Origin: Hemileia vastatrix
Taxonomy: Eukaryota > Basidiomycota > Pucciniomycetes > Pucciniales > Zaghouaniaceae
Length of the DNA stretch: 64,000 nucleotides
Direction: 5' to 3'
Assembly (NCBI GenBank): GCA_030280995.1
Contig: JASXTE010000005.1
Coordinates: 3,410,501-3,474,500 of the forward strand
The position numbers and the translations under genes are program-made. The notes beneath the pieces were generated by a model. The model saw only the letters and a list, made by a program, of their open reading frames with translations. It was not told where the DNA came from and ran no database searches. Below are positions 28,301-64,000 of the stretch, one piece after another. Numbering within the stretch: the first letter of the stretch is position 1; each line of letters starts with the position of its first letter.

Positions 28301-28768
28301 TTACAAGGCCAAGTTAATTTTTACCATGTGCAAAAGCCATTGGAAATGCTTTAATTAATTCCAAAATATTATCTTTCTCAGCTTTACTTATCTGAGTGCC
28401 AAATGATGCTTTTGAAATTTCAGTTTCCAGAAGTTCCATTTCATTGGATTCTCTTCCTTTACACGGGGAATTCGTTACTGACTCAATGTGTAAGACTGTG
28501 TTAAAAGAATTTATTTTAAATTTCTTTTACCATTCATGCCAATTGTAAAATTGATATTAGCAGGGTCTAATTTCACACCAAACTTAGTCAGAATATCATT
28601 TCCAATGATAAAACAGTTACTACAGTTAGTATTATCCATTACCACAAAGTCACAAATTACCCTTACATAACCATGTTGGTGTTTAAAGAAAACAGCAGCT
28701 TTGTATTTACCAATGGGGTGTAGCACTGATCCAAAACCTCTCCAATTTTTACTTTGAAGTGGCTGAAG
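25376..28768 (-). pseudogene. Pol of A2 (PR end, RT, RNase H, integrase, chromodomain)
   Basis: The longest frame is 28102-25784 (772 residues): RT with YIDD near 27770-27782, RNase H with TDAVF, integrase zinc region (H..H..CDSCQKSK) and D,D,E core with SDRDPIF and HPQTDGLAE. After a TAA at 25784-25786 the same frame continues (25777-25376) with the chromodomain-like end. A frameshift near 28075 separates it from the RT N-terminus (28289-28077). Stops also lie at 28511-28513 and 28769-28771. It is better preserved than A1; the YIDD box is intact. Confidence 0.92.
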
Positions 28769-31210: not shown

Positions 31211-31720
31211 ATTGTTAAGAATGACAATATTTTACGTCTACAAAAGGAAAAAACTCTATGGAATTAGTAGACAAAAGATATTAGCAATGTTATTACTAAT
31301 AAAAAAGCAATGGAGCTTACCCTGAATTTATATCTTTATTTATTTAAATAAATTATAAGAAAAATTCGAAAAAATCTGTTAAAAATATAATAATAAGTTT
31401 AACTATACCTCTATAAGGGTGAATAAGTAGCTGACCAAGCTTTAACCAAATACCAATTTAATTGGGTGTTATATTGGTGTCCAAATACCAAGTGAAATTG
31501 GGTTTATATTGGGTATGGTTACTACTGTAAATACCTAATTTTTATGATAAAAAATTAGTACAATTATTTTAAGGGTTCTTTTCCGCAATCACTGAGTTAT
31601 TATGACCAACTAATATGCAGCAGACCCAAATATTTGGTTATTTTGAGCTGTACTAAGGTAAAAATCACGCCCCAAGGCTTATACTAAATAATAAGTAAAA
31701 TATAAGGAAAGACCCCCAAT

Positions 31721-34387: not shown

Positions 34388-35190
34388 TGTCACGCGCCAC
34401 GTGACACTCGAGGCAAAAGTAGCTCATTAAATCAATACTAAAGGGTTAAAATCCATGCTCAAAGCGCAGAAAGCAACTCTCCATAGCAACTGCGACTTTC
34501 CTTTGTGTACTCGCTATTCAATCGCGCTAGCCTAAAACTCTAAATCTAAATTAGTCAATCTCTCAATAGTGTGTCTTAGTCTTTTTCCCAATAAGCGATG
34601 CACAGCGCAATAGTTAATATAATAGTACATTAAAATGTTTATGAAATGTCTGTGGGTTATTAAGGGGTAATGAGCATGGACGGAATGGTTAGTGAAGGAT
34701 TAAGGGGTTAACAGATGTTAGTGAGGATGGTCCAGGTGTAACGGATATATTTTAAATGGTTTGTGGAGTGCGGAATAGTGGATGAGTATGAGGTCAATGC
34801 GAGGAGGAGTAAAGGATATAAAAGGGGCTGGGTTTTTGGTTCGACATTCCTTAGAATTAAATTATAAAACGTATTTATAGTTAATAGTGATAAAACTCTA
34901 CGTGAAAATCATTATTATTGTATCTTTCTTTATTTTCTCAATAATCATATCTAAATCCTAAATCTTTGATTGTTGAGTTTCCAACCCTTCGTGAGATCTT
35001 AAGAATTTTAATATTACCGTTCAATTATATCAGAATCCTTCTCGAACATAACTCGAAGCAGTAGTTCTTCCTTCGAGTCATCTTCAAATCACTTCCTCAA
35101 ACTATCCCTCTGTGCTTAGAAGAAGTATCTGAACCTTTTATCTCACTTGCAGAAACATCCTCGACCTTGTGCGTAGGTCGTCCGGTGACA
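34388..35190 (+). repeat. 5' LTR of C1 (803 bp)
   Basis: Opens TGTCACGCGCCACGTGACA, in which TGTCACG and CGTGACA form a small hairpin around an E-box-like CACGTG. TATAAAAG at 34817-34824 is the likely core promoter. It ends CCGGTGACA. Confidence 0.94.
34817..34824 (+). promoter_or_regulatory. LTR TATA box of C1
   Basis: TATAAAAG, conserved at the same place in the 3' LTR (40857-40864) and in C2 (52116-52123). About 40 bases downstream is CATTCCTTAGAA, a possible transcription start region. Confidence 0.6.
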
Positions 35191-35267
35191 GTATAATTTA
35201 TTTCTCCGTAGTTATCATTCTTTGCACTACTACGTCCCTTTTCAGGTGTTTTCTCTAAATTCTTAAA

Positions 35268-36455
35268 ATGGCACCTGTTCAACGCACTCCTCCTACAGGC
35301 ACTACTACTAGAGCTCGCGCCAGAGGCAGGCCAACAGCCACTAGGCCTGTTTCCCGCACTCACTCCTTGGAGCCACTCGACCTTAGGGAACGGCAACATT
35401 CAGTCCAATCGGTAGAAGACATCCCACAAGATTTCGATGATTCTAGTGATGATGAAGAAGGAGAGGATACAATGCACGAGGCACCATCCGCCCCTGCTAA
35501 CCACCCTTCTGGTCAACCTTCAGAACCTGGACCATCCAATTCTCTGGAAGATTTCATGAGACTTTTCATGAAGACCCTTTCAAATTCAACGTCTTCAGAG
35601 GGATCTAAAATCAAAACTCCTTCTATGAAATCTCCTGATAAATTCGATGGAGAACATCCAGACAGATTGCGACCCTTCTTGCAAACCTGCAAGCTCCTGT
35701 TCCATAATGACCCTCGAACCTTCAATAACGACCGATCGAAAGTTGTTTATGCTTCTTCATTCCTGGCCGGAAAAGCAGCAAGATGGTTCGAACCTTATCT
35801 TCTCATGCTCTCTTCAACCAAAACCCACTTACTTATTAATAACTGGGAAAAGTTTGAAGACAAACTCTTCACGTTGTTTGGTGACCCGAATGAAACTGAC
35901 AACGCAGAAATTGAACTTGATTTCCTTTGCATGAGTGATAATGGGAAAGCCTCTGAATATATCTCAAACTTCAGAGCGCTTCAAACTCAAGTAGGTTGGA
36001 ATGATGCTGCCCTTAAGTATCATTTCAAAAAAGGAATTTCTTCGAGGATTCTGGATTTGTTAAATCTTCACGGTCAGAAGATGACTACTTTAACAGATTT
36101 AATGGATCGAACCCTTGAACTTGACGGCGTTTACCAAGGACGACTTCAACATCGTCGATACGCCAAAAAATCTCAAGGCTTAAATTTCAAATCAGGACCT
36201 TCTTCCCACCCACAAACAACTCAATCCTCCTGGACTCAATCCAAACCTATTAAGGGAAAGGACAAACCTTGACCAAAAAGATCGACCCCAGGCGATATCA
36301 GTAAAGTACTGGATCCTAAAGGGGAACTTAAAGAAGCTGAGAGGAAGAGGCAAACAGATAATGGGTTATGTATGTATTGTGGGGGTAAGCACAAGCTGGA
36401 AGATTGTGTAAAGTTGAAGGAAAGAGAAGGTACTTGTTCGAAGCCAAAAAACTAG
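35268..36455 (+). pseudogene. Gag of C1
   Basis: Starts MAPVQRTPPTG. Pro/Arg- and acid-rich N-terminus, then a capsid (SPDKFDGEHPDRLRPFLQ, AARWFEPYL, LFTLFGDPNE), basic linker, and zinc knuckle CMYCGGKHKLEDC near 36375. A TGA at 36270-36272 interrupts the frame; CGA to TGA is the simplest change. The natural end is the double TAG at 36453-36458, directly after a slippery heptamer. Confidence 0.88.
36446..36452 (+). promoter_or_regulatory. -1 ribosomal frameshift heptamer, gag/pol
   Basis: A AAA AAC in the gag frame, immediately followed by TAG TAG. In the -1 frame the sequence reads on as KKLVDSLLVC into the protease. The same heptamer, stops and pol frame are kept in C2 (53738-53744). Confidence 0.7.
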
Positions 36456-39400
36456 TAGATAGTTTACTTGTGTGCAAAGCAAACTATCTTATATCTCCCA
36501 GTGCACAGAACCTCCATGTCTTAAGGACTGGAGTTGCTTTAAACCGCTTGAGATTCATTCTTTTTAAGGAGGATATCCCCTTCAGTTGTCTTATAGACTC
36601 TGGAGCTTCAATTTCTTTTGTCAGTTTATCTTTTGCCGAGAAGTTACAGCTGACATTTACAGATATCGATTGAACTCCAATTTTTTTGGTCAAATCAGAG
36701 GAACCCAAATACTGGGTCAGTAAGAAAGTTTTATGGGTTTTCAGCTTTCTGCATTTTCCCCCCTTCGAGTGGGAACTAACAGTCTTGGACTCCCCAAGGA
36801 TGGACGATACTATTCTTGGCCATGACTTTTTAACGCATTGGAATCCTGAAATTGACTGGACACTGGGATTGATCACCCCACGGACTAAGTATATTTCTAA
36901 TTCTTCAATGCATGTCAATAGGGAGTTAAACAACCCGCCTGACAATGTCCTGCTAGAGGGCAAACCTCTTCCAGATGACTTTCAAGCATCTGATCTTTCT
37001 TTAAATGAGTAATTGGCTAACCCTTCTAGCTCAATGACTTCACTCAAAGAGGATTTAAATTGCCTCAAAGTAATTGATTTATGCTCTCTCAATTCTGGTC
37101 TTCCCTCAACAGATTCTCTCAAAGATGATGAAGACGACCAAATCGACGTTGAAGCAATTAAATCGACTCTACCAGAAATCAATCATGATTTCCTCGATGT
37201 TTTTTCAATCTGCAAGGCCGATAAGTTATCACCTCATCGATTCTACAATCATCAGATAGAGTTAATAGGTCCAGTACCTCCGGCAGGTCCTGTCTATTCT
37301 TTGTTGAAGGACGAATCTCAAGTTCTTCGAGACCAAATTTCAGAGAATGTAGCCAAAGGTTTCATCAATGCCAGTAAATCTCTAACCGGCTCCCCTGTCC
37401 TCTTTGTAAAAAAGAAGGATGGTAGTCTTAGGTTGTGTGTTGACTATAGAAAGTTCAACACAGTCACTAAGAAGAATGCATATCCTGTTCCTCCTATGTC
37501 ATTGCTTCTTACCCTTTTTAATGGTGCTTATTTCTTTTCTAAAATTGATCTTAGAGGCACTTACAATCTTATTTGTATTGCTGAAGGTCATGAACCACTG
37601 ACTGCAATGCGCACTAGATTTGGTAGTTTTGAATATTTAGTTATGCCTTTTGGATTGTGTAACGCACCATCTACTTTTCAAACTTTTGTCAATGACATCT
37701 TTCAAGATGTTGTCGAACAATTTGTTGTCGTCTATTTAGATGATATTTTAATTTTCTCAAAGACACTAAATGAACATATTCATCATGTTCGACAGGTTTT
37801 AAATCTGCTTCGAGATCATGGACTCTACGCCAAGCATAATAAATGCGAATTCCATCTTAAATCTATTGATTTTTTGGGTTTTACATTATCCACTGATGGT
37901 TTAGTCGTGGAGAACAAAAAAGTTCAAAAGGTCCTGGAATGGGCTGAGCCCAAATCTGTTAAATCCCTCCAAGGAATTTTGGGTTTTGCAAATTTCTATA
38001 GAAGATTTATTAAAGATTACTCTAAAACTATTTCCAATCTTACTTCTCTTCTTAGAAAAGATATTCCTTTTTTTTTACTTCTACAGCGCGAAAGGAATTC
38101 AAAGCATTGAAGATGGTGTTCACCACAGCTCCAATTCTTTGACACTTTGATCCTACTGCTTTGACAATAGTCGACACAGATGCGAGCGATTATGCTATCG
38201 CAGGGGTCATTTCTCAATTGAATCGGGAAACAAAACTGTTTCATTCTGTTGCTTTTGAGTCACGCAAACTCATTTCAGCAGAATTAAATTATGAAATTCA
38301 TGACAAAGAGCTTTTAGCTATTATTCACTGTCTTAAAAAATGGCGCTCTTTCTTCTCAGCCTAGATAGTCCTTCTCAAATTTTAACAGACCATAATGCTT
38401 TGAAATACTTTATGTCTTCCAAAGTGTTAACCAGGCGTCAAGCCAGGTGGGCTGAATTTCTGTCTGAATTTCCCTTTTCTATTTCCTATCGCCCAGGTAA
38501 GAAATGCATTGTCCCAGATATCTTGTCACGTCGGGACGACATTTACCCACAGTGGGGGGACGCATTTGCTGACAAAAATCCAGCAAATGTGAAATCAATC
38601 TTCAACGAATCAATGTTAACGAATCATCAACTTAATTTGATGACAATTCAATCGTTTCAAAATCCACTATCCAACATCCTTGAAGCTCAGCTGAAGGACA
38701 ATTATTGTTTAGGGTTGAAAAACAAAATACTCTCGAAGCAAGGGGCCAAAAGATTTAGTATTGAATCAGGTCTATTAGTTTTTGAGGGTAGGGTAGTCAT
38801 ACCTGACAACAATGAAATAAAATTATTGATTTTCAAAAGTCGACATGATTCTCCATTAGTTGAACATTTTGGTGTTGATAAAACCTACCAGTTAATAGCG
38901 AGGGATTTTTTCTGGCCAGGTATGACCAGGGAAATCAAGGCCTATATAAAAGCTTGTTAAGAATGTAATAGGAATAAGGCTCCCTGTCACCGGAATTATG
39001 GGTTGCTTCAACCACTTCCTATTCCCTCTAAACCTTGGGAATCTTTATCGATGGATTTTATTTCTCAACTTCCCCTTTCTAATAATTTTGATGCTATATT
39101 AGTAATAGTAGATAGATTCTCAAAAATGTCTATTTTCATTAAAACCACTACTACTGCTACTGCAGAAGATCTGTCAAAATTGTTTCTAGAATATGTATTT
39201 TCCAAACACGGCTTACCTAATGATATTATTTCAGATAGAGGCTCATTTTTTGTATCCACATTCTGGACTCAACTGTGTTGACAACTCAATATCACGAGGA
39301 ACCTCTCCACAGCCTATCATCCCAAAACCAATGGGCAAACAGAAAGGGTCAACCAAATCCTCAAACAATACCTTTGAATGCATGTCAGTTACCAACAAGA

Positions 39401-39467
39401 CAATTGGACCACATGGCTACCATTGGCCAAATTAGCTTATAATAACTCAACTCATTCTTCGACACAA
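36446..39467 (+). pseudogene. Pol of C1 (PR, RT, RNase H, partial integrase)
   Basis: In the -1 frame of gag: protease LIDSGASISFV (about 36591), then RT (37013-38110) with CVDYRKFN, VMPFGLCNAPS and an intact YLDD at 37733-37744. RNase H follows after a 1-nt loss near 38072 (TDASDYAIAG, about 38173). The integrase core has MDFISQL and SDRGSFF. Stops: TGA 36671-36673 and TAA 37010-37012 (C2 keeps Arg and Gln codons), TGA near 39281, and TAA/TGA after. Coding ends at the deletion junction near 39468, before the integrase end and chromodomain. Confidence 0.9.
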
Positions 39468-39468
39468 C

Positions 39469-40326
39469 AATCTATTCCCCAAGTTCAAGTAACTTCTCGG
39501 CTACGTCAAAGGAAGCAGCATTGACAATGTTATCAATCTCGCCGCTCAATTCTTCAATATATCTTGCTCATCAAACCTAACGAGGTTTCTTCGACCATAC
39601 TTGATCGAGGGTTTCTTCGTTTTCCTCCCTCGAGGTAACAATTGGTAATCTATCCTCCACTGCCACTTCCACCGCAATGGGTCCCACAAGTGTCGCTTCC
39701 ACATTTGAAGCTTCTGTTGTAGGGGCCTTGATGATGACGTCTGAATTCTAAAAACCAAATCATTAGTAATTAAATTTATAAATTATAAAAGGGTGAACTT
39801 ACTTCGAAGATTGTGTCAGGCTCCAAAAATAATCTAGGAGTGACCTTCTCTGCCACCTCCCTTTCCTCTTTGTCATCTTCGATGACCACCCGTTGTTTTT
39901 TCGGGGTTTCCTTGAGATGGGAATTTCTTCCTCCTCCTCAAACAATTCGTCAACTTCCTCCTCGACAACCCCCCTCTTGTTCGCAGCCCTAGCCACCCAG
40001 ATGTTCACATCATCTTCAACTTCTTCCTCATTTTCCCCCACCGATTGATCGTCCCCAATTGACAAATTCCAGATGTCCTTGACTACTTCCTTCGTCTTAG
40101 TAAACCGACTCTCAATGTTGGCATTCTTTGCTAAGGCGTCACACGCCACTCTTCTCCATTGGCAAAACTCGCACTTCTGGCGAGGCCCTTGTGTCGCTGT
40201 GCTCTCCACGCAGAAATACTCCATTGACTTGCAAGCCGTGCAAGTCTTCGAAAATTGCCGTGTGACAACACCCCTATCCGCTTTAGGGTGTGGAGGCGTG
40301 GGAGTCGGTGTAGGGAAATACGTCAT
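39469..40326 (-). pseudogene. Antisense zinc-cluster-like gene of C1, spliced
   Basis: On the strand opposite to gag-pol. ATG at 40326; exon 1 to about 39803; intron 39802-39748 (GTAAGT...TTTTAG); exon 2 from 39747 to the deletion junction. It encodes CTACKSMEYFC, 12 residues, CEFCQWRRVAC: the C-X2-C-X6-C-X12-C-X2-C-X6-C spacing of fungal Zn2Cys6 clusters, though without the usual Lys/Arg richness in the first half. An acidic region (VEEEVDELFEEEEE) follows. A 1-nt frameshift lies near 39905. A TATA-like box (TATAAGA on the minus strand, 40411-40417) precedes the ATG by about 85 nt. C3 has the same gene and intron (59221-60243). A DNA-binding regulator is possible but unproven. Confidence 0.75.
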
Positions 40327-40427
40327 AGTGATTTAAAGTAATAAAATTAAAGTAAAAGAGGAAGGGAAATTAGTGTGGAAAATATGTTTTACGCTCAACG
40401 GAGTTCACGTTCTTATACCTGGGCATC

Positions 40428-41230
40428 TGTCACGCGCCACGTGACACTCGAGGCAAAAGTAGCTCATTAAATCAATACTAAAGGGTTCAAATCCATACTC
40501 AAAGCGCAGAAAGCAACTCTCCATAGCAACTGCGACTTTCCTTTGTGTACTTGCTATTCAATCGGGCTAGCCTAAAACTCTAAATCTAAATTAGTCAATC
40601 TCTCAATAGTGTGTCTTAGTCTTTTTCCCAATAAGCGACGCACAGTGCAATAGTTAATATAATAGTACATTAAAAGGTTTATGAAATGTCTGTGGGTTAT
40701 TAAGGGGTAATGAGCATGGACGGAATGGTTAGTGAAGGATTAAGGGGTTAACGGATGTTAGTGAGGATGGTCCAGGTGTAACGGATATATTTTAAATGGT
40801 TTGTGGAGTACGGAATAGTGGATGAGTATGAGGTCAATGCGAGGAGGAGTAAAGGATATAAAAGGGGCTGGGTTTTTGGTTCGACATTCCTTAGAATTAA
40901 ATTATAAAACGTATTTATAGTTAATAGTGATAAAACTCTACGTGAAAATCATTATTATTGTATCTTTCTTTATTTTCTCAATAATCATATCTAAATCCTA
41001 AATCTTTGATTGTTGAGTTTCCAACCCTTCGTGAGATCTTAAGAATTTTAATATTATCGTTCAATTATATCAGAATCCTTCTCAAACATAACTCGAAGCA
41101 GTAGTTCTTCCTTCGAGTCATCTTCGAATCACTTCCTCGAACTATCCCTCTGTGCTTAGAAGAAGTATCTGAACCTTTTATCTCACTTGCAGGAACATCC
41201 TTGACCTTGTGCGTAGGTCGTCCGGTGACA
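40428..41230 (+). repeat. 3' LTR of C1 (803 bp)
   Basis: Same length as the 5' LTR and about 98% identical by eye. Roughly half of the differences are C/T or G/A at CpG positions. The antisense gene promoter lies just outside it, at 40411-40417. Confidence 0.94.
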
Positions 41231-41235
41231 TTAAG

Positions 41236-43828
41236 GCAGGGCGCAACAAATTCTGTGGGGGTATACCAAGCACAGATAATGTGGGTATTGAAGGATGCAA
41301 TTCCAGATCATGTGGGAATTTTCATGGATGATGGAGGTATAAAAGGACCAGACAGTGATTAAAATGGGGAAGTGTTAGAGGAGAATCCTTATATTAGAAG
41401 GTTTGTTTGGGAATATGCAATTACTCTGGAAAGAGGGCTATTCAGGATAGAAGTGGCAGGATTAACAATATCTGGATCCTAATTTTCTTGTTGTGTTCCA
41501 GCGCTAGATATAGTGGGACATGTGGTATGCAAGGAAGGGAGGATCATGACGGAAAAACAGAAGAATAAGGTGCTTACATGGCCAAGGCCAAGAAATACTA
41601 CGGAAGTTAGAGGATTTTTAGGCATTTGTACATATTTAAGAGTGTTTATTTGATATTTTTCTATGTTATCTTCACCCTTAAGACGCTTAACAAGATAAGA
41701 TGTTGTATGGGATTGGACGGAGGAATGTGATGAGTCATTCAAGTTGTTGAAAAGGATTGTAGGAAAAGATATTATTTTGAAGAAATTGGAGTATGGACAA
41801 GGCTATGGGAAAAATAATCTAGCAGTGGATTCTAGTGTGTCTGTAGTGGGCGCAGTTTTGATGCAGGAGGATGAGGAAGGTAATGATAGAACTGTCTTTA
41901 TGAATCTAAGACTTTTACTAGAGTAGAGTCTAGGTACTCCCAGTCTAAGATGGAGTTATGCAGAGTAGCAAAGATTCTTAAGAAGCTACAATGGATGCTT
42001 TGGGGGCAACATTTTGAGTTGCAGGTTGATGCGCTATCATTGGTACAAATGATTAGTAGCCCAAGTTTACCAGATGAGCCCAAGACAAGGTGGGTAGCGC
42101 AGATTGATTTACTTTCTTTTGATTTGGTCCACAATCCGGGAAAAACTTTCACTATGCCAGATTCATTATCTAGAAGACCGCCATGTGAAGAAGACTTGGA
42201 CACCAAAGAATTTGAAGAAGATAAGAGATGGGTAAATGGCATAGATTATTGTTATGAAAAATTTGGGAAGGTTTTCCGTGATGACAATAAACTAGCAGGC
42301 AAGGTTGTCTGTGATGACAATAAAATAGTTGCGTGGAATGTCCATAAAGACATAAGGCTAGATGTTGATGATGTGCAGGATGTTTGCAAAGGTAGTCTGC
42401 AACTGGATTTAGGGAACATTGAAGCTAACGTAGCGACAGGGAGTGTGCTAGGCAAGGCAACAGAAGAGTCAGATGACAAAGATGATTCAAGGGGAAGTCA
42501 AGATAGTAGCACTCATCCCAAAGAAGGGGAGTATTCTGAAGATGATGCATCTACTGATGAGGGAGTAGAGTTGTTAAGACTATATCTGGAAGGCAGTAGT
42601 AGACCAGATTTTTGTGATAAAAAGGTTTGGCACAATATTGAAAAAGAACGCTAAAGGCTATTTTATAAAAGATGGGAAGTTATGGAAGGATCAAGCCTTG
42701 TTTCCCCAGTTAGTTGTTCCAACTAGGAAAAGGAAGGAAACAATACTCAGGGAGTGACATGAGAATTTAGGACATAGAGGTCAAGACAAGACGTATTGCA
42801 GAGTTAGGGAGAGATTCTGGAGGCCCAATATGAAGAATGAAGTAAGAGATTGGGTCAAATCTTGTCCTGAATGTCAGCAAGGGAGTTTCAGAAAGCCAAA
42901 GAGAAAGGTAGAGTGACGGGCAAAGATACTGTTTTTGGCAGGGTCAGTTTAGACGCAGTCCATATAAAAGAAAGATGCTTTAAATACTTGGTAGTAGCCA
43001 TGGATGATCTATCAGGATGGGTTGAAGCAGCGCCATTGGTAAATCTTAAGGCAAGTAATGTAGCTGAGTTCTTGAAAAAAAAATGGGTTTATAGGTATGG
43101 GGTAATGAAGATGGTGACTGTAGATGGTGGCACTGAATTTTCTGGAGAATTCCAAGAGGTAGTTAAAGGTATTGGTGCAAGGCTATGAGTTGAAACACCA
43201 TATTATCGTGAAGCAGAGGGGATGGTAGAAAGAGGGCATCAAGTTATAAAGGATGCGCTAGTTAAATTATGTGGGAATAATGGTGAAAAGTGGAAGAACT
43301 ACTGGCCATTAGTTTTGTTTGCAGACAGGATTTCAGTTAAAAGGACAACAGGGTTTTCACCATATGAACTTATGTTTGGTCAAAGGGCGGTATTACCTAT
43401 TGATCTAGAGGCTAGATCTTTTCTAGGATGTGACTGGGATCAAGTGCGCTTGACTGAAGATTTAATTCTAGCAAGGGTAGCGCAGCTTGAAAGAAAGGAC
43501 AAGTTTGTGGAGAAGGCATATGATAGAATGATGCAGATCCGTGACAAGTCAGTTAAATATTGGAATGAGCCTTTAGCGCATAGGTTAAAGAAGCCATTGA
43601 ACCCAGGAAATTTGGTTTTGGTTTATAATAGAAGTTTAGAAAGCCAATGGGGGAAGATGTTTGCTGACAGATGGAACGGTACTTATAGGGTCAGAAAGCA
43701 GATACTGGGGGGTTTTACTTACTGGAGGAACTAGATGGTACTGAATGGAAGTGGAATGTGGCAGCAGATCAGATCAAAAGGTTCTACCCAAGGGGTGTTC
43801 CAGTGATACAAGATGACCTCCTGAATTA
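41236..43828 (+). pseudogene. RT end, RNase H and integrase of B
   Basis: RT resumes with QGATNS and the catalytic box FMDD at 41321-41332, then DGGIKG. Stops interrupt it near 41360, 41479, 41650 and 41697. RNase H-like sequence (AVDSSVSVVGAVLMQ) leads into 41950-42654. The integrase zinc region (HENLGHRG...CPECQ) is near 42758-42880. The catalytic core has SLDAV, TVDGGTEF and EAEGMVERGH (D,D,E), with a TGA at 43186-43188. The C-terminal part runs to about 43828 and no chromodomain is visible. The copy is decayed. Confidence 0.88.
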
Positions 43829-44460
43829 AGAAAAACTACCAGAATGACCTCCTGGAAGAGGTTAAACTAAAAATTTATGTTAAGCTTTGTTTTTCTTAGA
43901 GAACTCACAGGAGGCTTGACACAGTTGTGACAGATAGAGGGCTCTAACTGTAAGTTAGGTGCACTAAGGCTGAACAGGAAACTGGCATAAGCGCTCAGAT
44001 GAGGACACAGAGGAAAATGAAATCTTATATTTTAATCATTCAAGGGGACATGATGAGATAGGCAATTGGATTAAAGAAGGCACATACCATGTAAATGCAA
44101 AAGATGCTGGGAATTTATCTAATGGGCTAACTAACCAGGATTGGAATAATGACTTATAGATGGGGCCCTCTACAGTTCGATTCTTATTTACATCATGTAT
44201 TTTTGTATTGCAGTAAAGGTGGTAAAGTTTTATGATTTAAAAGGTTTATTTATGATTTTTTAGGGTTTACAGTCTTTTAAAGAAAGTAGAGGGAGAAATG
44301 TTAGGTGCTCTAAATTTAGAAGACAGGTAGTATGGAAGACAGGTGTAGTAAAAAAGCGTCATGTCTAAAATGATTATTTAAAGGCATAGTGTGAAAAATA
44401 TATGAAGACTATGTACAGGAATAATGGACAGAGAAGGCTCATATGGAGGGCGCTAGTGGA

Positions 44461-45122
44461 CTATTCAGTATCGGGGTGAAAGCTATTAGGATATCCCTTC
44501 CAGTCTTCAGGCATGAAAAAACGACAAGGATTGGCGGGGAATCCAAGAATAGTTGATGAACTGATTTTTTTCATTAGCTGACCTATCATTTCTATATGGT
44601 TGTAGCGGGCTTCAAGTTCAGCGTCAGAAAAAGCTGGTACATTATAATAGGATAGAGACATAGCATCATATATAAGACGAAGTCTAGAAAACATTCGCAT
44701 GGAATGGACGAAATGTAAAGGAATAGGAACCCATCCCTGAGAGATGGATTCATTGAAGCCTGAAAAAGAGTCAGCGGGTAAATGAAGCGTAAGTATAATA
44801 AATGGTAATTACTTGCTAATAAATTTTGTGGGCACTCTGATGGCAAAGAAATGGTAATTGCGTCAGGAGCAGCTGTAGTGGAGCCTGAGTGCATGGAAGC
44901 ATTGGAGCTCGGAGTGGAAAAAAGCACAGTGCTAAGCTGGATAGATATTTTGCGCCTGGGAAAAGTAGGAAGTGATGGCGACTCATAAGGAATGTTGTTA
45001 TTGGCGGAAGAATTGGATCTAGCGGGACTATTAGTTTTAATTATGGGGGCGCTACTGGTGGAACTAGGAGGAAAGCAAATATAGCCAGTAGGCTGAGGAG
45101 TATTACGGTTCAGAGAGATATT
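44461..45122 (-). CDS. Antisense spliced gene 2 of element B, unknown function
   Basis: Exon at about 45122-44813, intron 44812-44760 (GTAATT...TTTTTCAG with a GCTGAC branch-like site), exon 44759-44461; phases agree. The product has a Ser/Thr/Pro-rich first part (NTPQPTGYICFPPSSTS) and a folded-looking second part (MRMFSRLRLIYDAMSL, FFMPEDWKGYP). Open coding through a spliced intron on the strand opposite pol argues for a real gene. It may be the downstream end of the antisense gene starting at 46818 or a separate gene. An in-frame TGA at 45123-45125 means the true start or acceptor is unresolved. I do not recognise the family. Confidence 0.5.
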
Positions 45123-45733
45123 TCAAGTTTTGTGGTATCTAAAGCAGCTGTCACAGGCAGGTATAAAGGAGGAATACCCCTGAGGTATAGAAAATGTACA
45201 ATGAAAGTTGCAGCGTTTACAAAATTAGCACACTTGATCTTTGGGAAATGTGCGATATTGAATCATGATGTTTGGATGAAAGTAATCCGGCTTATTAGAT
45301 GGGCTATTTTTAGGTTAATAATGGCATTATGGTAGAGATGTCAGTTGCGCAATAACTGACATGAGTGCTGAATGGTTACTAAGATGGATGTGAAGAATCT
45401 TCATCAAAGAAGAAAAAAAATGAGGGACCTAAGGAAAGGAGAATCAATTTCAGTCAAGAGAAAGTCATACGCTGCAAAGATCTGAAGATTTCAAGGGAAC
45501 GCATGCATATATGACGCAGGGGATGTATTTGCTGCTATAGGGAGTAGCACTGATCTCAGATTTATTTTGTGTTTATCATTTTACTTTTCATTGGCACTTA
45601 GTAGTAAGGTGCGCTTTTTGGAAAAAGGATGATATTTTTTTCTGGGGGCAACTCATCTTGCAGATTTTGGGCTCTCACAAGGGACTTAAGGTCAAGCAGA
45701 ATTAAGGAGAAAGAAAAATTATTATTAAATTTT

Positions 45734-46818
45734 TTACAAAACTATATACAATTTTTTAAGGAATATATAAAAAAGATTTTTAGTATTCTGCGTCATTGTA
45801 GATAGGGACGCAGAAGGCCAGTCGTAAAAAGCCTCTTGCATGTTTTGCTGCAAAGTGGTGACTAGCTGTTTTCTTTTGTCATACTCGGTGCGAGTATAGA
45901 CCGGGACCGCCTCAAGAAATTTTTCGACGGTGACTATCATATTGTTCATACAATGCATGGTTGCATCATATGGTGCGCAGGCAACGTGCTCTGAAAATTC
46001 CCAGTTTTGAGCCATGGCGGGTTCTTCTTCTTCTTTGTCCTTGTCAGGGGGGACGTTGGCTGGCCAATCATCCGGGATGATAGCGTTGAAGACTGGTTGA
46101 AGGGTAGTCCAGTAAGGAGTTGGTGAGTGTGGAGTGCACTCAGGAATTGGATCGGTATCCCAGATGGGATCTTCTTCCAAGGCAGGAAGGAAAAGGGGAG
46201 CATTAGGCGGCAGAGGAGATGCAGTGTAAGGAGTTGCTGGCGCATTATAAGAGAGAAAAGAGCTTATGTTACCATTTTAAGAAAAAAAAAGAGAGCTTAC
46301 TGTACTATCCTCTGAAAAGAGAGAATTTGGAATGGAGGCAACACTACTAGGTGTAGGTGCACGGTGATTAACCTTGGCTTGTTTGTTGCTAGGTGGAGTT
46401 GAAGATATAGGCGCAGGGCGCTTGATGGCCAACTGACTCATCATATTTGAGGTTGAAGCGTTGGGATCCAGGCGTGCAAAAGTGGGCGGCCCATTGTAAC
46501 TACATTTCTTCTTGCGTTGTTTACAGTAATCGCATGACTAAGAAAGAAAAAAATAGAAGATTAGTAATTAGGAGAAAGGAAGGAAAAGAAAAGAAGAAAA
46601 AAGACTTACAGTAAAGAAAACGTTGCCACGTCAGGCTTTGAGAAATGAAAGGGAGTTATGCCATTCTCAATGCAGCAGGTGCATCTTGTCCCACCCATCA
46701 GCGTAGTAACTGGTGTCACAGGTGGAGCAGCAGCAGGCTGGGTATGCACAAACTGCCAGATAGCGTCCACAACGTTGGCTATATTTTCAGTATTAACGGT
46801 ATTATGTCTAGTATTCAT
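45734..46818 (-). pseudogene. Antisense zinc-cluster-like gene 1 of element B
   Basis: Starts MNTRHNTVNTENIANVV at 46818. Exon 1 46818-46610 includes CTCC; intron 46609-46538 (GTAAGT...TTTCTTAG); exon 2 46537-46301 opens SCDYCKQRKKKCSYNG, a basic C-X2-C-X6-C half-cluster as in Zn2Cys6 proteins; donor GTAAGC at 46300. A further acidic exon-like frame, MEEDPIWDTDPIPE and upstream, lies at about 46250-45734. Joining exons 1 and 2 in the cysteine frame needs a 1-nt shift, so this copy has probably decayed. A TATAAATA box (minus strand, 46910-46917) lies about 92 nt upstream of the ATG, just inside the 3' LTR boundary. Confidence 0.6.
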
Positions 46819-46909
46819 TGAAAAGGCAGAAAAAATGAAGAAAAGAGGATTGTAATAAATAAGAGAAGATGGAAGAAGATGGAGGAAGAAGACTCTGCAA
46901 GACACAGGA

Positions 46910-46917
46910 TATTTATA
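46910..46917 (-). promoter_or_regulatory. TATA box for the antisense gene of B
   Basis: TATAAATA on the minus strand, between the 3' LTR (46951) and the antisense ATG (46818). Its placement matches the TATA-like boxes of family C. Confidence 0.5.
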
Positions 46918-46940
46918 GGCTCCTGGGGACAGTCGCAAGT

Positions 46941-46950
46941 AGAGGGAGGA
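46941..46950 (+). other. Polypurine tract of B
   Basis: AGAGGGAGGA directly before the 3' LTR start TGTGGTAC. This shows that the antisense genes are inside the element rather than next to it. Confidence 0.75.
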
Positions 46951-48067
46951 TGTGGTACACACCTCGCAGGTGGTTTGATTTTGGACCAATCAGCTCGCAT
47001 AGTCCAGGAAGAACAAAGAGGATTCATAGAACAGTAGGAAGTGCTAAACTATAATGTGTGTTTGTGTGTTTCAAGGACAAAGAGAAATAGAAGTGCGGAA
47101 GAGGATTCAGGGTCTGTGTGCTTGGATTTTGCAGCAGGATGCGCCGCATAATGGGGAATTGTGTGTTATTGATTTAGGACTGCAAGCGCTGAACAATATG
47201 GACTTGTATTTTCCAATAATCGTGTATTATGCACTAAGGAAGGCATTATGGCTTAAGGAAAGGCTCAAGTGCAAAGTATACTGCACCACGGCTAGTGTGG
47301 TAACTTACTGAAACAGGTGATATAGGAGGTTAACTAGTTGAAAATCAAAGCAACTAGGATCAGCCTTAGAAGGAGTCAAACTTGGAAGTAGCGCTGAAAC
47401 AAACAAAGGTACATTCAAGGGCGCTCATGTCAAGGTGTCAAGAATGAGTGAGACAAGTTAATACTAGTGTTAGTAAGGATAGGGTATGTTTTAGGCGCTT
47501 TAGTTGTTACAAGTGGTGTACATTGTCTACTAATAGATTAGTTAATGTTTTACTAATGTAACACTAGAGTCAGCGCTGGAGATCCACTAGGGAACTGTGT
47601 TTAAAGCGCTGGAAAAATATAAAGAGGGTATCACATCTAGTAATAGCGAGAGGACAATTGGACAAATAGTTTTTTAACATAAAAGTAGTTAATAATTGTG
47701 AAGTCAAAGATATTAGAATTTTCAGCAATCAATTGTTTGAGAGTATTTAGATTCAAAGGATTAACTATTATTAGAGTTATTTTATTGCTATAATAAGGCA
47801 TATTTGAAGAGAGCGCTTCAAGAGGGAGTAGGTGTGGATATTAGCACTTGTTAAGAATAGAAATATCTGGATAGTAATACTTGTTTTTTTGGATCTTTTA
47901 AAAAACTCAGTTCTCAACTTATAAACTTTCTAATCACATATTAGTGTTACACATTATTGCGCTGTCTTTGAAAATAAGAGTGGCGGGTGCTTCTTTTTAG
48001 AAATTGAAATGAAGAACCAACCCATCTTGCATTGTGTCTACTGCTTAGTACTTTAGAACTCTCTACA
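46951..48067 (+). repeat. 3' LTR of element B (1117 bp)
   Basis: Same length and ends as 17100-18216, with scattered substitutions. It ends CTCTCTACA. Confidence 0.92.
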
Positions 48068-57393: not shown

Positions 57394-58312
57394 AACTCTC
57401 TTTTTTTCTTTTCTTTTCTTTTTCTATTTTTTTTCCTTCTTCTCTTTAAAATCTAAAACATCTTTACCTTTAAAATTTCCTTATTCTTTCTTCTTTTCCT
57501 TTTAATAAGTTTTTCAACCTTCTTTGTAAAATAAATAAAAAATTAAGTTGAAATAAAATAAAAATTAAAATAAAATAAAATTAAATTAAAATTATATTAA
57601 AAAAAAATAATATAAAATAAAATAAAATAAAAATAGAACAAAACAAATAAAATAAAACCTTCTAAAAAATTTCTTTAAATTTTCTTTTTTCAATTTTCTA
57701 CATACATTCTTTCTTAAAAAAATTCTTTTCCACGAACTATCAAAAAAAATTTCACAAATGCAACCCGACAATCTTTCTCGAATTTCACTTCAACCTTTTA
57801 ATATCTTTTTTTTTAAAAAAAAAAATTTCTTTGAACAATTACTTCTTTCTTTTAAATTCTTTTAAAATTTATTTCTTCTCTTCTTTTCAAATAACCAAAA
57901 TCCCTCAAAACTTCAATAAACAAACTTTCACAAATAACAATTTTTTCTTTCGTTAAATTTTTATTTCAAACAACTATTTCTTTTCTTCTTACTTAAATTT
58001 TTCTTTTCAAAATTTAAACTAAAATTCCTTCAATTAAATATTCTTTCTTTTCTTCTTTCAAAATTTAAAACAAAATTTTATTTAAATCTTTTTCTTTCTT
58101 TTTCTTTTTTCTCTCAAAATCTTCTAAAATAAATATTTAAATTTTAAATTAAAACAACAAAATAAAATAAATAAATACAAATTGTTTCTACTTTTCTTTT
58201 CCTTTCTCCTTTCATTTTAAATTTTCTCTCAAACCAATCCCTTCATCTTCTCCAAAATCACCCTTATCTCCTTCCTAAATTTTTAAAAAACTTCCTCCTC
58301 TCCTACCAGTAC
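57394..58312. repeat. Pyrimidine-rich spacer of C2
   Basis: About 900 bp made mostly of T, C and A tracts (TTTTCTTTTC..., AAATAAAATAAAA) with almost no G on the plus strand. The equivalent segment in C3 (60244-60991) is the complement. It separates pol from the antisense gene. No coding sequence. Confidence 0.8.
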
Positions 58313-59114
58313 TGTCACCGGACAGCCTACACACAAGGTCAAGGATGTTCCTGTAAGTGAGATGAGGAGTTTAGATACTTCTTCAAAGCACAGAGGGATG
58401 GTTCGAGGAAGTGATTCGAAGATGACTCAAAGGAAGAACTACTGCTTTGAGATATGTATGAGAAGAATTCCAATATAGTTTAAAGGTAATGTTAAAATTC
58501 TTATAATCTCACAAAGGGTTGGAAACTCAACATTCAAGTTTTTAAGATTTAGGAATGATTATTGAGAAAAGTAAGAAAGATACAATAATAATGATTTCAC
58601 TTAAAGTTTTACCACTATTAATTATAAATACGTTTTATAATTTAATTCTAAGGAATATTGAACCAAAAACCCAACCCTTTTTATATCCTTTACTCCTCCT
58701 TGCATTGACCTCATACCCATTCACTATTCCGCACACCACAGACCATTAAAATATATCTATTACACCTGGACCCTCCTCACTAACATCCGTTAACCCCTTA
58801 ATCCTCCACTATTAATTCCTTCCATGCTCACTACCCCTTTTAATAATTCACAGACATTTAATAACCCTCTTAATGCACTATTACATTGACTATTGCGCTG
58901 TGCATTGCTTATTGAAGAGAAGACTGAGACATACTATTGAGATATTGACTAATTTAGATTTAGAGTTTAGACTAGCGCGATTGGATAGCGAGTACACAAA
59001 GGAAATTTTCAGTTGCTATGAAGAATTGCTTTCTGCACTTCAAGTATGGATTTGAGCCTTTTATTACTGATTTAATGAGCTACTTTTGCCTCGAGTGTCA
59101 CGTGGCGCGTGACA
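58313..59114 (-). repeat. 3' LTR of C3 (802 bp)
   Basis: On the minus strand begins TGTCACGCGCCACGTGACA (59114 side) and ends TCCGGTGACA (58313). It matches the C1 LTRs. Confidence 0.92.
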
Positions 59115-59124
59115 GATGCCCAGG

Positions 59125-59131
59125 TATAAGA
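59125..59131 (+). promoter_or_regulatory. TATA-like box of the C3 antisense gene
   Basis: TATAAGA on the plus strand, 11 nt outside the LTR and about 90 nt upstream of the ATG at 59221. The same sequence and spacing occur in C1. Confidence 0.45.
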
Positions 59132-59220
59132 ACACGAGCTCCATTGAGCGTAAGACATACTTCCCACACTAATTTCCCTTCCTCTTTATTTAATTATTAT
59201 TTTTATTTTTTTAACCCACT

Positions 59221-60243
59221 ATGACGGATTTCCACACACAAACTCCCACGCCTCCACACCCTAAAGCAGTTGGGGGTATGGTTACCCGACAGTTTTCCAA
59301 GACTTGCATGGCCTGCGAGTTGATGGAATATTTTTGCGTGGAAAGCACGACTACACCAGGGCCTTGCCAGTAGTGCAAACTTTGCCGATGGAGAAGGGTG
59401 GCGTGCAACGCCTTGTCAAAGAATGCCAATATTGAGAGTTGGTTTACTAAAACAAAATACTGGGTAATCCCTAAGACAAAGGAAGTAGTCAAAGACAATT
59501 GGGACGTCTCAATTGGGGACAATCAATCGGTGGGGGAGAGTGAGGAGGAGGTTGAGGATGATGTGACCACATGGGTGACTCGGCCTGCGAGTAAAAAGCG
59601 AGTAGTAGAAGAGGAAGTCGACGAGTTGTTCGAGGAGGAAGAGGAGATTCCCATCTCGAGGAGGACCCCGAAAAAACTGCGGGTGGTCATTGAAGATGAG
59701 GAAGAGGAGAGGGATGTGGCGGTGGAGGTCACTCCAAAATTATTTTTGGAGGCTGACCCTATTTTTGAAGTAAGTCTATTCCCTGATATTTTAGAAATTT
59801 AGGTACTGATGGTCTTGTTATAGAATTCAGACGTCATCATTGAAGTCCCTACGGAGGAAGCTTCAAATGTGGAAGCAACCCTTGTAGAACCCACTGCTGT
59901 GGAAGTGGCAGTGTTGGTTGAAGATAGATTACCGGTGGTTACCTCGAGGGAGGAACACGAAGAAACACTCAATCAGGTATGGTCGAAAAAGCCTTGTCAG
60001 GTTCGATGGGCAAAGTTTATTGAAGACTTAAGCGGTGAAATTGATAAGATTGTCAATGCTGCTTCCTTCAATGTAGCTGAGGAGCTACTGGAACTTGGGG
60101 AATTGATTCCAGTAGGAGAGGTGGAGAATTTTGAAAAATGTAGAAAGGAGATAAGGGAAATTTTGGAGAAGATGAAGGGATTGGTTCGGGAGAAGATAAA
60201 AGAGAAAAGAAGAAAAAGGAATGTAGAAACATTTTGTATTTAG
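59221..60243 (+). pseudogene. Antisense zinc-cluster-like gene of C3, spliced
   Basis: Opposite to C3 gag-pol. Exon 1 59221-59769, intron 59770-59823 (GTAAGT...TTATAG, 54 nt), exon 2 59824-60243; phases agree, 322 codons. Residues 29-39 are CMACELMEYFC and 52-62 CKLCRWRRVAC, 12 positions apart, as in a Zn2Cys6 cluster. A TAG at 59371-59373 lies between them, where C1 has Lys. An acidic stretch follows (VEEEVDELFEEEEE), then a C-terminal domain not available in C1 (WAKFIEDLSGEIDKIVN, helical, ending in KEKRRKRN, basic). The intron is at the same codon as in C1. Nuclear DNA binding is a possibility from the motif only. Confidence 0.75.
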
Positions 60244-60991: not shown

Positions 60992-63900
60992 TTAAGGTTT
61001 TGCTTTTAAAGGATATTTAAGATGAAAAGATTTTAGGAGTTCAGGGGCATTAGAAACATTGATGGCTGGTTCCCAGGATGTTTTTTCTGAGTCATCAAGG
61101 AAGCCTTCTCATTCCACGAGGTATTGAAGTTTCCCCTTGCGCATTCTTGAATCATGATATGGCTTACTTTCCACTCTAGATGGTCTTCTACTTCAACCGG
61201 TTAAGGAGGAGATTGGTTCTTGCCCAGGTAGCTTTCTTGAGCCAGTTCCAGGAGAGATATGTGAAAAACAGGGTGAATAGACTGCCATTTAGGAGGTAGC
61301 TTGAGTCAAAATGCAGTTTTAGAGACTTCAGAGTCGATTTCAAATGGCCCCAAGCGTTTTTCAGCCAGTTTCTTTGATGGTCAAGTTGTTCGAATGTTTT
61401 GTGCTTCGAGCCATACCTTGTCGCCTGGTTTAAAAGAAGGAGCAGTTTTTTAATGTTTGTCGGCCTGTTCCTTGTACCTTCGAATTGCTAATTCCAAATT
61501 TGATTTAAGTTCCTCTTGGAGTTGTGATATGGTTTGAAGATAATGATCTGCAGGATGACTAGTTCCTACATGGATTGAGTTGAATCGAGGATGTCTTCCA
61601 TAAACAGTTTCGAAAGGAGATTGTTGTGTCAAAGAATGAGTCGAGTTATTATAAGCAAATTTGGCCAATGGTAACCATGTGGTCCAATCATCTTGTTGGT
61701 AACTGACATACATTCGAAGATATTTTTCGAGGATTTGGTTGACCCTTTCCATTTGCCCATTGGTTTCAGGGCGATAAGCTGTGGAGAGGTTCCTTGTGAT
61801 ATTGAGTTGTCAACAAAGTTAAGTCCAGAATGTGGATACAAACAATGAGCCTCTATCTGAAATAATATCATTAGGTAAGCCATGTTCGTAAAATACATAT
61901 TCTAGAAACAATTTTGACAAATCTTCTGCTGTAGCAGTAGTAGTGGTTTTAATAAAAATAGACATCTTTTAAAGTCTATCTACTATTACTAATATAGCAT
62001 CAAAATTATTAGAAAGAGGAAGTTGAGAAATAAAATCCATCGATAAAGATTCCCAAGGTTTAGAGGGAATAGGAAGTGGTTGAAGCAACCCATGCTTCCA
62101 GTGACGGGGGTCTTATTCCTATTACATTCGTAACAAGCTTTTCTATAGGCCTTGATTTTTCTTGTCATTCCTGGCCAGAAGAAAATCCTTGCTATTAACT
62201 AGTAAGTTTTATCAACCCCAAAATGACCAGCTAATGGAGAATCATGTCGACTTTTGAAAATCAATAATTTTATTTCATTGTTGTCAGGTATGACTACTCT
62301 ACCCTCAAAAACTAATAGACCTAATTCAATACTAAATCTTTTGGCCCCTTGCTTCGAGATTATTTTGTTTTTCAACCCTAAACAATAATTGTCCTTCAGC
62401 TGAGCTTCGAGGATGTTGGATAGTGGATTTTGAAACGATTGAATTGTCATCAAATTTAGTTGATGAGTCATTAACATTGATTTGTTGAAGATTGATTTCA
62501 CATTTGCTGGGATCTTGTCAGCAAATGCGTCCCCCGCTGTGGGTAAATGTCATCCCAAGGTGACAAGATATCTGGGACAATGCAGTTCTTACCTGGGCAA
62601 TAGGAAATAGAAAAAGGAAATTTAGACAGAAATTCAGACCACCTGGCTTGACGCCTGGTTTACACTTTGGAAGACATAAAGTATTTCAAAGCATTATGGT
62701 CAGTTAAAATTTGAAAAGGTCTATCTAAGCTGAGAAGAAAAGAGCGCCATTTTTTAAGACAATGAATAATAGCTAAAAGTTCTTTGTCATGAATTTCATA
62801 ATTTAATTCTGCTGCAATGAGTTTGCGTGACTCAAAAGAAACAGGATAAAACAATTTTGTTTCAGGATTTAATTGAGAAATGACCCATGCGATAGCATAA
62901 TTGTTCACATCTGTCTTGACTATTGTCGAAGCAGAAGGATCAAAGTGTTGAAGAATTGGAGCTGTGGTAAAAGCCGTCTTCAATGCTTTGAATTCCTTTT
63001 GTGCTGTTGAAGTAAAAACAAAAGGAATATCTTTTTAAGAAGAGAAGTAAAATTGGAAATAGTTTTAGAGTAATCTTTAATAAATCTTCTATAGAAATTT
63101 GAAAAACCCAAAAATCCCTGGAGGTATTTGTCAGATTTGGGCTCAGGCCCTTCCAGGACCTTTTGGACTTTTTTGTCGGTTATGACTAAACTATCAGTGG
63201 ATAATTTAAAACCCAAAAAATCAATACATTTTAGGTGGAATTTGCATTTATTATGCTTGGCATAGAGACCGTGATCTCGAAGTCGATTTAGAACCTGTCA
63301 AACATGATGAATATGTTCATCTAGTGTCTTCGAGTAAATTAAAATATCATCTAAATAGATGACAACAAATTGTTCGACAACATCTTGAAAGATGTCATTA
63401 ACAAAAGTTTGAAAAGTTGATGGTGCGTTACACAATCCAAAAGGCATAACTAAATATTCAAAACTACCAAATCTAGTGTGCATTGCAGTCAGTGGTTCAT
63501 GACCTTCTGCAATGCAAATAAGATTATAAGTGCCTCTAAGATCAATTTTAGAAAAGAAATTAGCACCATTAAAAAGGGTAAGAAGTAATGACATAGGAGG
63601 AACAGGATATGCATTCTTCTTAGTGACTGTGTTGAGCTTTCTATAGTCAACACACAACCTAAGACTACCATCCTTCTTTTTTACAAAGAGAACAGGTGAG
63701 CTGGTTGGAGATTTACTGGCTCTGATGAAACCTTTGGCTACATTCTCTATAATGTAGTCTTGAAGATTTTGAGATTCATCCTTCGATAAAGAATAGACAG
63801 GACCTGCCGGAGGTACTGGTCCTATTAACTCTATCTGATGGTCGTAGGGTCGTTGAGGTGGTAACTTATTGGCCTTGCAGATTGAGAAAACATCGAGGAA

Positions 63901-64000
63901 ATCATGATAGATTTCTGGTAGAGTTGATTTAATGGCTTTAACATCAATTTGGTTGTCCTCATCATCTTCGAGGGAAGACCGGAATTGAGATAGCATAATT
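60992..64000 (-). pseudogene. Pol of C3 (RT, RNase H, integrase, chromodomain)
   Basis: RT in 63996-63298 with an intact YLDD (63346-63357) and VMPFGLCNAPS; TGA near 63298. RNase H parts are at 63216-62980 and 62983-62660. Integrase parts follow at 62501-62199, 61898-61629 and 61752-61450 ([16 protein letters not shown]). The chromodomain remnant is near 61210-61030. Several 1-nt shifts and stops occur. The 5' part lies outside the window. Confidence 0.87.

What the first reader, a model, noticed from the sequence alone, without database searches (positions are those of the whole stretch)
59125..60243. Family C retrotransposons carry a spliced antisense gene with a Zn2Cys6-like cysteine pattern
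Seen directly: in C3 (59221-60243) and C1 (40326-39469) the strand opposite gag-pol, between pol and the 3' LTR, encodes the same protein. Both copies share the start region, cysteine spacing C-X2-C-X6-C-X12-C-X2-C-X6-C, acidic tract and a GT-AG intron at the same codon. The intron bodies differ while the splice sites are kept. Established: C6 zinc clusters are fungal DNA-binding domains, and antisense extra ORFs near the 3' LTR are known in some plant gypsy lineages. Inference: the element encodes its own nuclear regulator from an antisense transcript.
Basis: partly seen in the sequence, partly recalled or inferred. Interest (0 to 1): 0.86.

Follow-up and report, generated by a model that had tools for sequence, protein, structure and literature searches.

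The report
Antisense zinc-cluster-like gene in fungal retrotransposons
A jumping-gene family in a large, probably fungal genome carries, on the strand opposite its own replication genes, an extra intron-containing gene for a cysteine-rich protein that selection has kept, which suggests that the element makes its own accessory protein.

Summary
I examined 70 copies from the 748-Mb genome, found by searching with this gene. LTR lies next to the gene in 70 of 70 (edge 98-109 nt from the ATG in 69), and the pol end is on the opposite strand in 63. Each of the six cysteines is kept in 65 to 70 of 70. The intron donor GTAAGT is kept in 67 of 71 rows. Pairwise dN/dS falls from 0.51 (close pairs) to 0.19 (distant pairs), as expected if the protein is selected while elements are active and decays after insertion. 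A second LTR element in the window (B) carries two more antisense, intron-containing genes with nearly the same cysteine spacing. Zn2Cys6 membership is not established: Pfam Zn_clus matches recur but stay below cut-off, and structure prediction was uninformative. Best reading: an antisense accessory gene, comparable to plant Retand/Grande antisense ORFs, with a zinc-cluster-like domain and an intron. Regulation of the LTR is inference. Transcription is untested.

The parts
58313..59114 (-). 3' LTR of element C3 (element runs on the - strand); its inner edge faces the antisense gene
   Evidence: blastn to the C1 5' LTR, 87.6% identity over 808 columns; LTR ends TGTCAC...GTGACA
59115..59220 (+). 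leader of the antisense gene between LTR edge and ATG, with TATA-like GGTATAAGAAC at about 59123-59133 and a pyrimidine-rich stretch
   Evidence: TATAAGAA somewhere in the 200 nt before the ATG in 62 of 70 copies; LTR edge to ATG 98-109 nt in 69 of 70. Promoter function not tested
59221..59769 (+). C3 antisense gene, exon 1: Cys domain (codons 29-62) and acidic tract; broken by an in-frame TAG at 59371-59373
59770..59823 (+). C3 intron, 54 nt, GTAAGT...TAG, with a branch-like CTGAT
   Evidence: 71 rows: donor GTAAGT in 67, acceptor TAG in 65 and AAG in 2, length 54 or 55 in 56 (range 49-71), CTRAY in 66 (no chance control for CTRAY)
59824..60243 (+). C3 antisense gene, exon 2, with a Lys/Arg-rich end (by eye)
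   Evidence: pN/pS 0.50 across 71 rows, 0.78 in the last 32 codons
60244..61040 (+). AT-rich, C-poor spacer (1.5% C on +) between the antisense gene's end and the end of pol
61156..64000 (-). C3 pol, antisense to the gene (runs off the window)
   Evidence: inverted-repeat and blastn matches to C1 and C2 pol
34388..41233 (+). element C1, LTRs 34388-35193 and 40428-41233 (98.0% identical), 5-bp target duplication TTAAG, lying between the two LTRs of element B
39803..40326 (-). C1 antisense gene, exon 1 (1-nt frameshift after the acidic tract)
39748..39802 (-). C1 intron, 55 nt
39469..39747 (-). C1 antisense gene, exon 2, with stops, cut by a deletion into pol
58163..58306 (-). C-terminal remnant of the C2 antisense gene; C3 appears to be inserted into it (C3's other end is outside the window)
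17100..48067 (+). element B (second LTR element; LTRs 17100-18216 and 46951-48067, 94.7% identical), interrupted by other elements
45734..46818 (-). antisense gene B1 of element B: exon 1 46818-46610, intron about 46609-46538, exon 2 from 46537, further coding stretch to 45734 (second intron not resolved); the window copy lacks Cys3 and does not keep the frame at the first junction
   Evidence: Zn_clus E 0.0036 on the exon 2 piece, below cut-off
44461..45266 (-). antisense gene B2 of element B: exon 1 45266-44813, intron about 44812-44760 (53 nt), exon 2 to 44461; the window copy has stops in the Cys region

Best explanation
Family C is a Ty3/Gypsy-type LTR retrotransposon whose genome includes a third gene on the opposite strand, between pol and the 3' LTR. 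Shown: the layout recurs in the copies examined, the frame evolves as a protein-coding gene, and it contains a conserved short intron-like stretch with kept splice signals. Because the gene is antisense, the genomic RNA carries only the complement of the splice signals, so the intron survives reverse transcription (follows from established retrotransposition). Inferred: an antisense promoter at the junction of the 3' LTR and the internal region (TATA-like box about 95 nt before the ATG) makes a spliced mRNA for a protein of about 320 residues. That protein would have a two-zinc cysteine cluster, a long acidic middle and a basic tail, and would work in the nucleus as an accessory factor of the element, most likely by binding nucleic acid, for example the LTR or chromatin at it.
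For: Layout: LTR in the same relation in 70 of 70 copies, pol end on the opposite strand in 63 of 70. Coding: C1-C3 dN/dS 0.151, with 0 of 2000 randomisations as low (null mean 0.68). Across 71 rows pooled pN/pS is 0.35, with 0.29 in the Cys region and 0.23 in the rest of exon 1. dN/dS falls from 0.51 to 0.19 with divergence. Of six frames, this one has the lowest pN/pS (0.25 in exon 1) and the fewest stops. Cys codons kept in 65-70 of 70; splice signals kept. Intact copies exist: exon 1 open in 25 of 71 rows, whole gene open in 2 of 71. Element B has the same arrangement with two genes and similar cysteine spacing. Zn_clus is the most frequent weak Pfam match in family C and the best match for the B1 exon 2 piece and four B2 frames, always below cut-off.
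Against: No RNA evidence for transcription or splicing. No significant Pfam, PDB or protein-collection match. In family C, five other Pfam families, one member each, have better weak E-values than Zn_clus (best 0.057), and the C1 frame matches no family at E 10. AlphaFold models have no confidence. The Cys region is not more constrained than the rest of exon 1 (0.29 against 0.23-0.25). The loop between Cys2 and Cys3, basic in canonical Zn2Cys6 (recalled), is not basic here. In B2 the Cys region shows no constraint in 11 close copies (pN/pS 1.0; six cysteines complete in 6 of 11), though exon 2 does (0.44). The palindrome at the LTR edge is perfect in only 34 of 70 copies. Copies were found through this gene, so copies lacking it were not counted.
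Confidence: 0.55

Rival explanations
1. The antisense protein is a real element gene, but acts outside transcription: for example as a nucleic-acid chaperone, RNA-export or assembly factor, or at integration, with the Cys cluster binding RNA or protein.
For: Selection shows a protein function but not which one. The Cys region lacks the canonical basic first loop and scores below the Zn_clus cut-off. The C-terminus is Lys/Arg-rich by eye.
Against: The cysteine spacing matches a class known mainly as DNA-binding (recalled), and in element B the second half CDYCKQRKKKC looks canonical (E 0.0036, below cut-off).
Confidence: 0.25
2. It counters host silencing of the element, as VANC proteins do for some plant DNA transposons (recalled).
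For: Copies are numerous (150 scored matches, the scoring limit, of 7283 first-look candidates), and the gene is kept by selection.
Against: No methylation or expression data; no sequence relation tested to anti-silencing proteins.
Confidence: 0.12
3. The strand matters as antisense RNA: it silences or tunes the element, and the open frame is secondary.
For: Antisense transcripts are discussed as regulators of other retrotransposons (PMC7264820, passages).
Against: Codon-position pattern and dN/dS show selection on the protein.
Confidence: 0.05
4. A host gene captured once and carried passively.
For: An intron and a separate promoter would fit capture in antisense orientation.
Against: LTR beside the gene in 70 of 70 examined copies, deep divergence with low dN/dS, and no relative in the protein collection. 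A host parent gene in this genome was not searched for apart from the element copies.
Confidence: 0.03

Closest known systems
Antisense additional ORFs (aORF-3R) of plant Gypsy elements: Retand lineage with TRP28 (PF04195), maize Grande gene23, rice RIRE2 (PMC11963269 and PMC7264820, passages seen)
   Different: Host probably fungal; cysteine cluster instead of TRP28 (no PF04195 match); a conserved intron (the word 'intron' does not occur in the main text of either paper; PMC7264820 only urges looking for spliced antisense transcripts); two elements in one genome with similar cysteine spacing.
HTLV-1 HBZ, antisense gene of the 3' LTR side (named in PMC11963269 passage)
   Same: Antisense gene near the 3' LTR, spliced (recalled), nuclear.
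   Different: HBZ is a bZIP factor (recalled) of an animal retrovirus; no sequence relation claimed or tested.
Fungal Zn2Cys6 cluster domain, PF00172
   Same: Cysteine spacing CX2CX6CX12CX2CX6C in family C; recurrent weak Pfam match.
   Different: Below the curated cut-off in every case scanned; first loop not basic; encoded antisense by a retrotransposon.
Retroelements of Austropuccinia psidii MF-1 (RT hits)
   Same: Closest named fungal RT relatives among the 120 listed hits, up to 60% identity over 83% of the query.
   Different: No homologue of the antisense protein was found in the same protein collection; whether those elements carry an antisense gene was not tested.

Membership tests
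Fungal Zn2Cys6 cluster (PF00172) | Six cysteines spaced CX2CX6CX5-12CX2CX6-8C (spacing recalled) | tested here: met
   Family C: X12, each Cys kept in 65-70 of 70 copies. Element B deviates: B2 X14, B1 CX2CX7CX14CX2CX6C
Fungal Zn2Cys6 cluster (PF00172) | Profile score above Pfam's curated cut-off (21 bits) | tested here: not met
   Best: B1 exon 2 piece 17.8 bits, E 0.0036; B2 16.4 bits; family C best E 0.72 in 11 of 25 members
Fungal Zn2Cys6 cluster (PF00172) | Basic residues between Cys2 and Cys3 that contact DNA (recalled) | tested here: not met
   Family C loop is mostly ESMEYF; the basic residues are in the second half
Fungal Zn2Cys6 cluster (PF00172) | Two-zinc fold | tested here: inconclusive
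   AlphaFold2 pLDDT 33.5 (183 aa) and 49.5 (55 aa); no PDB sequence match
Fungal Zn2Cys6 cluster (PF00172) | Binds zinc and DNA | not testable with these tools
   needs protein
Antisense aORF-3R of Gypsy elements | Antisense to gag-pol, between pol and 3' LTR | tested here: met
   LTR 70 of 70, pol end on the opposite strand 63 of 70
Antisense aORF-3R of Gypsy elements | Present in most copies of the family | tested here: inconclusive
   At least 150 matches in the genome and gene or remnant in all 3 window copies, but copies were sought by this gene, so those lacking it were not counted
Retand TRP28 (PF04195) | TRP28 domain | tested here: not met
   no PF04195 among Pfam matches up to E 10
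Ty3/Gypsy LTR retrotransposon | gag, RT, RNase H, integrase in Gypsy order, LTRs, 5-bp target duplication | tested here: met
   PF03732 E 2.5e-9, PF00078 E 2.8e-33, RT_RNaseH E 4.8e-7, rve E 3.7e-12; Chromo E 2.7e-4 but below cut-off; TTAAG
Antisense aORF-3R of Gypsy elements | Antisense transcript | not testable with these tools
   no RNA data

The most novel reading that the evidence does not exclude
LTR-retrotransposon families of this probably fungal genome carry, in the same antisense slot, one or two spliced zinc-cluster regulators that bind their own LTR edge. This would be a self-encoded transcription-factor system, exchanged between element lineages as a module (C3 carries main-family LTR and pol but the antisense gene of a sister subfamily).
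Probability: 0.3. Interest if true: 0.82.

Novelty: new variant of a known kind. Interest (0 to 1): 0.62.

Why it matters
Antisense genes next to the 3' LTR are known in plant Gypsy elements and in some retroviruses, but their origin and function are open. Here one occurs in a probably fungal genome, with an intron, measurable protein selection and a recognisable cysteine pattern, and a second element has two genes of similar design. That makes the question 'do LTR retrotransposons encode their own nuclear regulators?' testable with RNA-seq. It also warns annotators that many such copies, intact exons included, could be taken for host genes.

Tried and rejected
Protein collection: the C1 exon-1 frame (none at E 0.01 of 162 candidates) and the spliced protein of one naturally open copy (none at E 1 of 4926 candidates). 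As a control, the family's RT found 7659 proteins among 7986 scored candidates, and Austropuccinia psidii MF-1 is prominent in the 120 listed, so the collection does hold rust-fungus proteins. The search needs shared 5-residue words, so distant homologues can be missed. Viral contigs: none. PDB by sequence: none. Rfam at gathering score: none. AlphaFold: two uninformative models, so no fold search was made. Profile comparison of the C and B2 proteins: probability 2.5%, E 0.018, not evidence of homology. A count of host Zn_clus genes in the genome could not be made. The idea that the LTR-edge palindrome is the binding site was weakened: perfect in 34 of 70 copies, although the edge is the best conserved 60-nt window of LTR plus leader (0.966 against median 0.944). 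The script stopped with an error after its main table; the regional values come. A first B2 estimate included a row that does not align and is replaced. One B1 intron length (L083) is a mis-hit of my search pattern and is not used. The host was not identified.

Papers: search listings; passages of PMC7264820 and PMC11963269. No paper holding Zn2Cys6, 'LTR retrotransposon' and antisense together was found (0 papers). No claim beyond these searches, which cover an open-licence library.

Full report
What is there. Three copies of a Gypsy-type element (family C) lie in the window: C1 (34388-41233, +), C2 (from 51694, +) and C3 (- strand, 3' LTR at 58313-59114). C1 has LTRs that are 98.0% identical and a 5-bp target duplication TTAAG, and lies between the two LTRs of another element, B. 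Gag, RT, RNase H and integrase are recognised by Pfam above cut-off; the chromodomain-like pol end is below cut-off. C2 has only its C-terminal remnant, apparently because C3 is inserted there.

Correction. Both window copies of the antisense gene are broken. C3 has an in-frame TAG between the third and fourth cysteine. C1 has a one-base frameshift after the acidic tract, stops in exon 2, and a deletion joining exon 2 to pol.

Is it a gene? Between C1 and C3, 136 differences in 264 aligned codons fall 34, 22 and 80 on codon positions 1, 2 and 3. dN is 0.099 and dS 0.658, ratio 0.151; 0 of 2000 randomisations of the same differences reach that (null mean 0.68, lowest 0.30). For comparison, gag and pol pairs give 0.27-0.41 at lower dS. 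The intron is 70% identical against 82% and 84% for the exons. The genome search (747.6 Mb, 791 contigs) scored 150 matches, its limit, out of 7283 first-look candidates. I examined 70 of those 150: the best 30, delivered with the search (the first is C1 itself), and 40 chosen down the list; C3 makes a 71st row. The sample is biased towards copies like C1 that have the gene. LTR sequence lies upstream in the same relation in 70 of 70 (more than 600 nt of it in 66), with the LTR edge 98-109 nt from the ATG in 69 of 70. The pol end lies on the opposite strand in 63 of 70; of the other seven, one is C1 itself and the rest were not followed up. The six cysteines are kept in 67, 69, 67, 68, 65 and 70 of 70, against 20 of 70 for another Cys codon of C3. 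The donor is GTAAGT in 67 of 71 rows, the acceptor TAG in 65 and AAG in 2, the length 54 or 55 nt in 56, and a CTRAY branch-like motif is present in 66. The rows that fail were not examined one by one.

Selection. Over 71 rows, pooled pN/pS is 0.35: N-terminus 0.25, Cys region 0.29, rest of exon 1 0.23, exon 2 0.50, last 32 codons 0.78. The Cys region is thus not more constrained than its neighbours. By divergence, dN/dS runs 0.51 (dS 0.05-0.11), 0.40, 0.34, 0.31, 0.28, 0.33 and 0.19 (dS 0.64-1.0). I read this as selection during activity and neutral decay after insertion. In exon 1 the true frame has pN/pS 0.25 and a mean of 0.62 stops per copy (35 of 71 without a stop in aligned codons). The mirror frame on the gag-pol strand has 0.34 and 1.3 stops, with 1 of 71 copies free of stops. 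The other four frames lie between 1.03 and 1.43. Exon 1 is open from ATG to donor in 25 of 71 rows and the whole gene in 2 of 71, so intact copies exist.

A second element. Element B (LTRs 17100-18216 and 46951-48067) carries two antisense genes in the same place; its 3' region shows no nucleotide match to family C. B2 (45266-44461) reads C-X2-C-X6-C-X14-C-X2-C-X6-C, complete in 6 of 11 aligned copies (in a twelfth the exon 1 region did not align), with a 53-nt intron (GTAAGT in 8 of 12). B1 (46818-45734) reads C-X2-C-X7-C-X14-C-X2-C-X6-C with an intron between Cys3 and Cys4; all six are present in 4 of 6 fetched copies, and the second half in 6 of 6. Each query reached the limit of 150 scored genome matches (of 1638 and 1617 candidates). 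Constraint on B2 is mixed: exon 2 pN/pS 0.44, exon 1 0.73, Cys region 1.0 in 11 close copies; for B1 it was not measured. C and B2 proteins are not shown to be homologous.

What the protein is. The spacing in family C is that of the fungal Zn2Cys6 cluster (recalled). Zn_clus is the most frequent weak Pfam match there (11 of 25 members, best E 0.72; six other families match one member each, five of them with better E, best 0.057). It is the best match of the B1 exon 2 piece (E 0.0036) and the only match of four B2 frames (E 0.01-2.2), matching half-domains. Every score is below cut-off. PDB gives nothing, and structure prediction has no confidence. In family C and in B1 the basic residues sit in the second half, the reverse of the canonical arrangement (recalled). 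I therefore call it zinc-cluster-like, not a Zn2Cys6 member. From memory only, and untested, predicted proteins with a similar two-half cysteine pattern exist in Austropuccinia psidii.

How it may work. Shown: position, orientation, intron-like stretch, selection. Inferred: an antisense promoter at the LTR edge (TATAAGAA in 62 of 70 copies; the LTR edge is the best conserved 60 nt of LTR plus leader), a spliced mRNA, and a nuclear accessory protein acting on the element's own DNA or RNA. An intron in an antisense gene can persist through retrotransposition because the genomic RNA carries its complement.

Mosaic. In C1 against C3 the antisense gene has dS 0.66, but pol has 0.14-0.15 and the LTRs are 88.5% identical. 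C3 and L016 share the antisense-gene type of L017 and L021. The sequence in the LTR place of L017 and L021 aligns poorly (0.48 and 0.38 distance to C3), so their LTRs are different or damaged, while C3 differs from the main family by 0.13 on average and from L016 by 0.07. The simplest reading is that the antisense gene moved between element lineages by recombination.

Known and new. [quoted passage not shown] in Retand 97% of clusters encode TRP28, thought able to bind DNA (PMC11963269, passages; PMC7264820, passages). Listings from searches for a fungal or zinc-cluster example showed none, within an open-licence library only. Its RT is closest, among named fungi in the 120 listed hits, to Austropuccinia psidii (up to 60% identity), a rust; the top hit is annotated from a frog genome, so 'fungal' is an inference.

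Noticed in passing
window 44461-46818 (-): Element B carries two antisense, intron-containing genes with six-cysteine patterns between pol and its 3' LTR; no nucleotide similarity to family C there.
   Followed up: partly
window 58313-60243, L016, L017, L021: C3 and L016 look mosaic: main-family LTR (and pol in C3) with the antisense gene of a sister subfamily seen in L017 and L021.
   Followed up: partly
window 34388-34406 and 40428-40446: The C LTR begins with an interrupted palindrome TGTCACG-CGCCA-CGTGACA next to the antisense start; perfect in 34 of 70 copies.
   Followed up: partly
window 60244-61040 and 57391-58202: About 800 nt of extremely C-poor (1.5% C on + in C3) spacer between pol and the antisense gene's end; role unknown.
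   Followed up: no
window 35194-35220: No obvious tRNA-type primer binding site directly after the C 5' LTR, unlike element B (by eye); the priming mode is not clear.
   Followed up: no
first row: The top database hit of the family C RT is a protein annotated from a frog genome (Eleutherodactylus coqui, 48% identity over 68% of the query), above the rust hits; contamination or transfer was not examined.
   Followed up: no
window 12680-15535 (-): Host-like ORFs; one resembles FAN1 by eye, but the Pfam match was weak (FAN1_HTH E 0.14).
   Followed up: no
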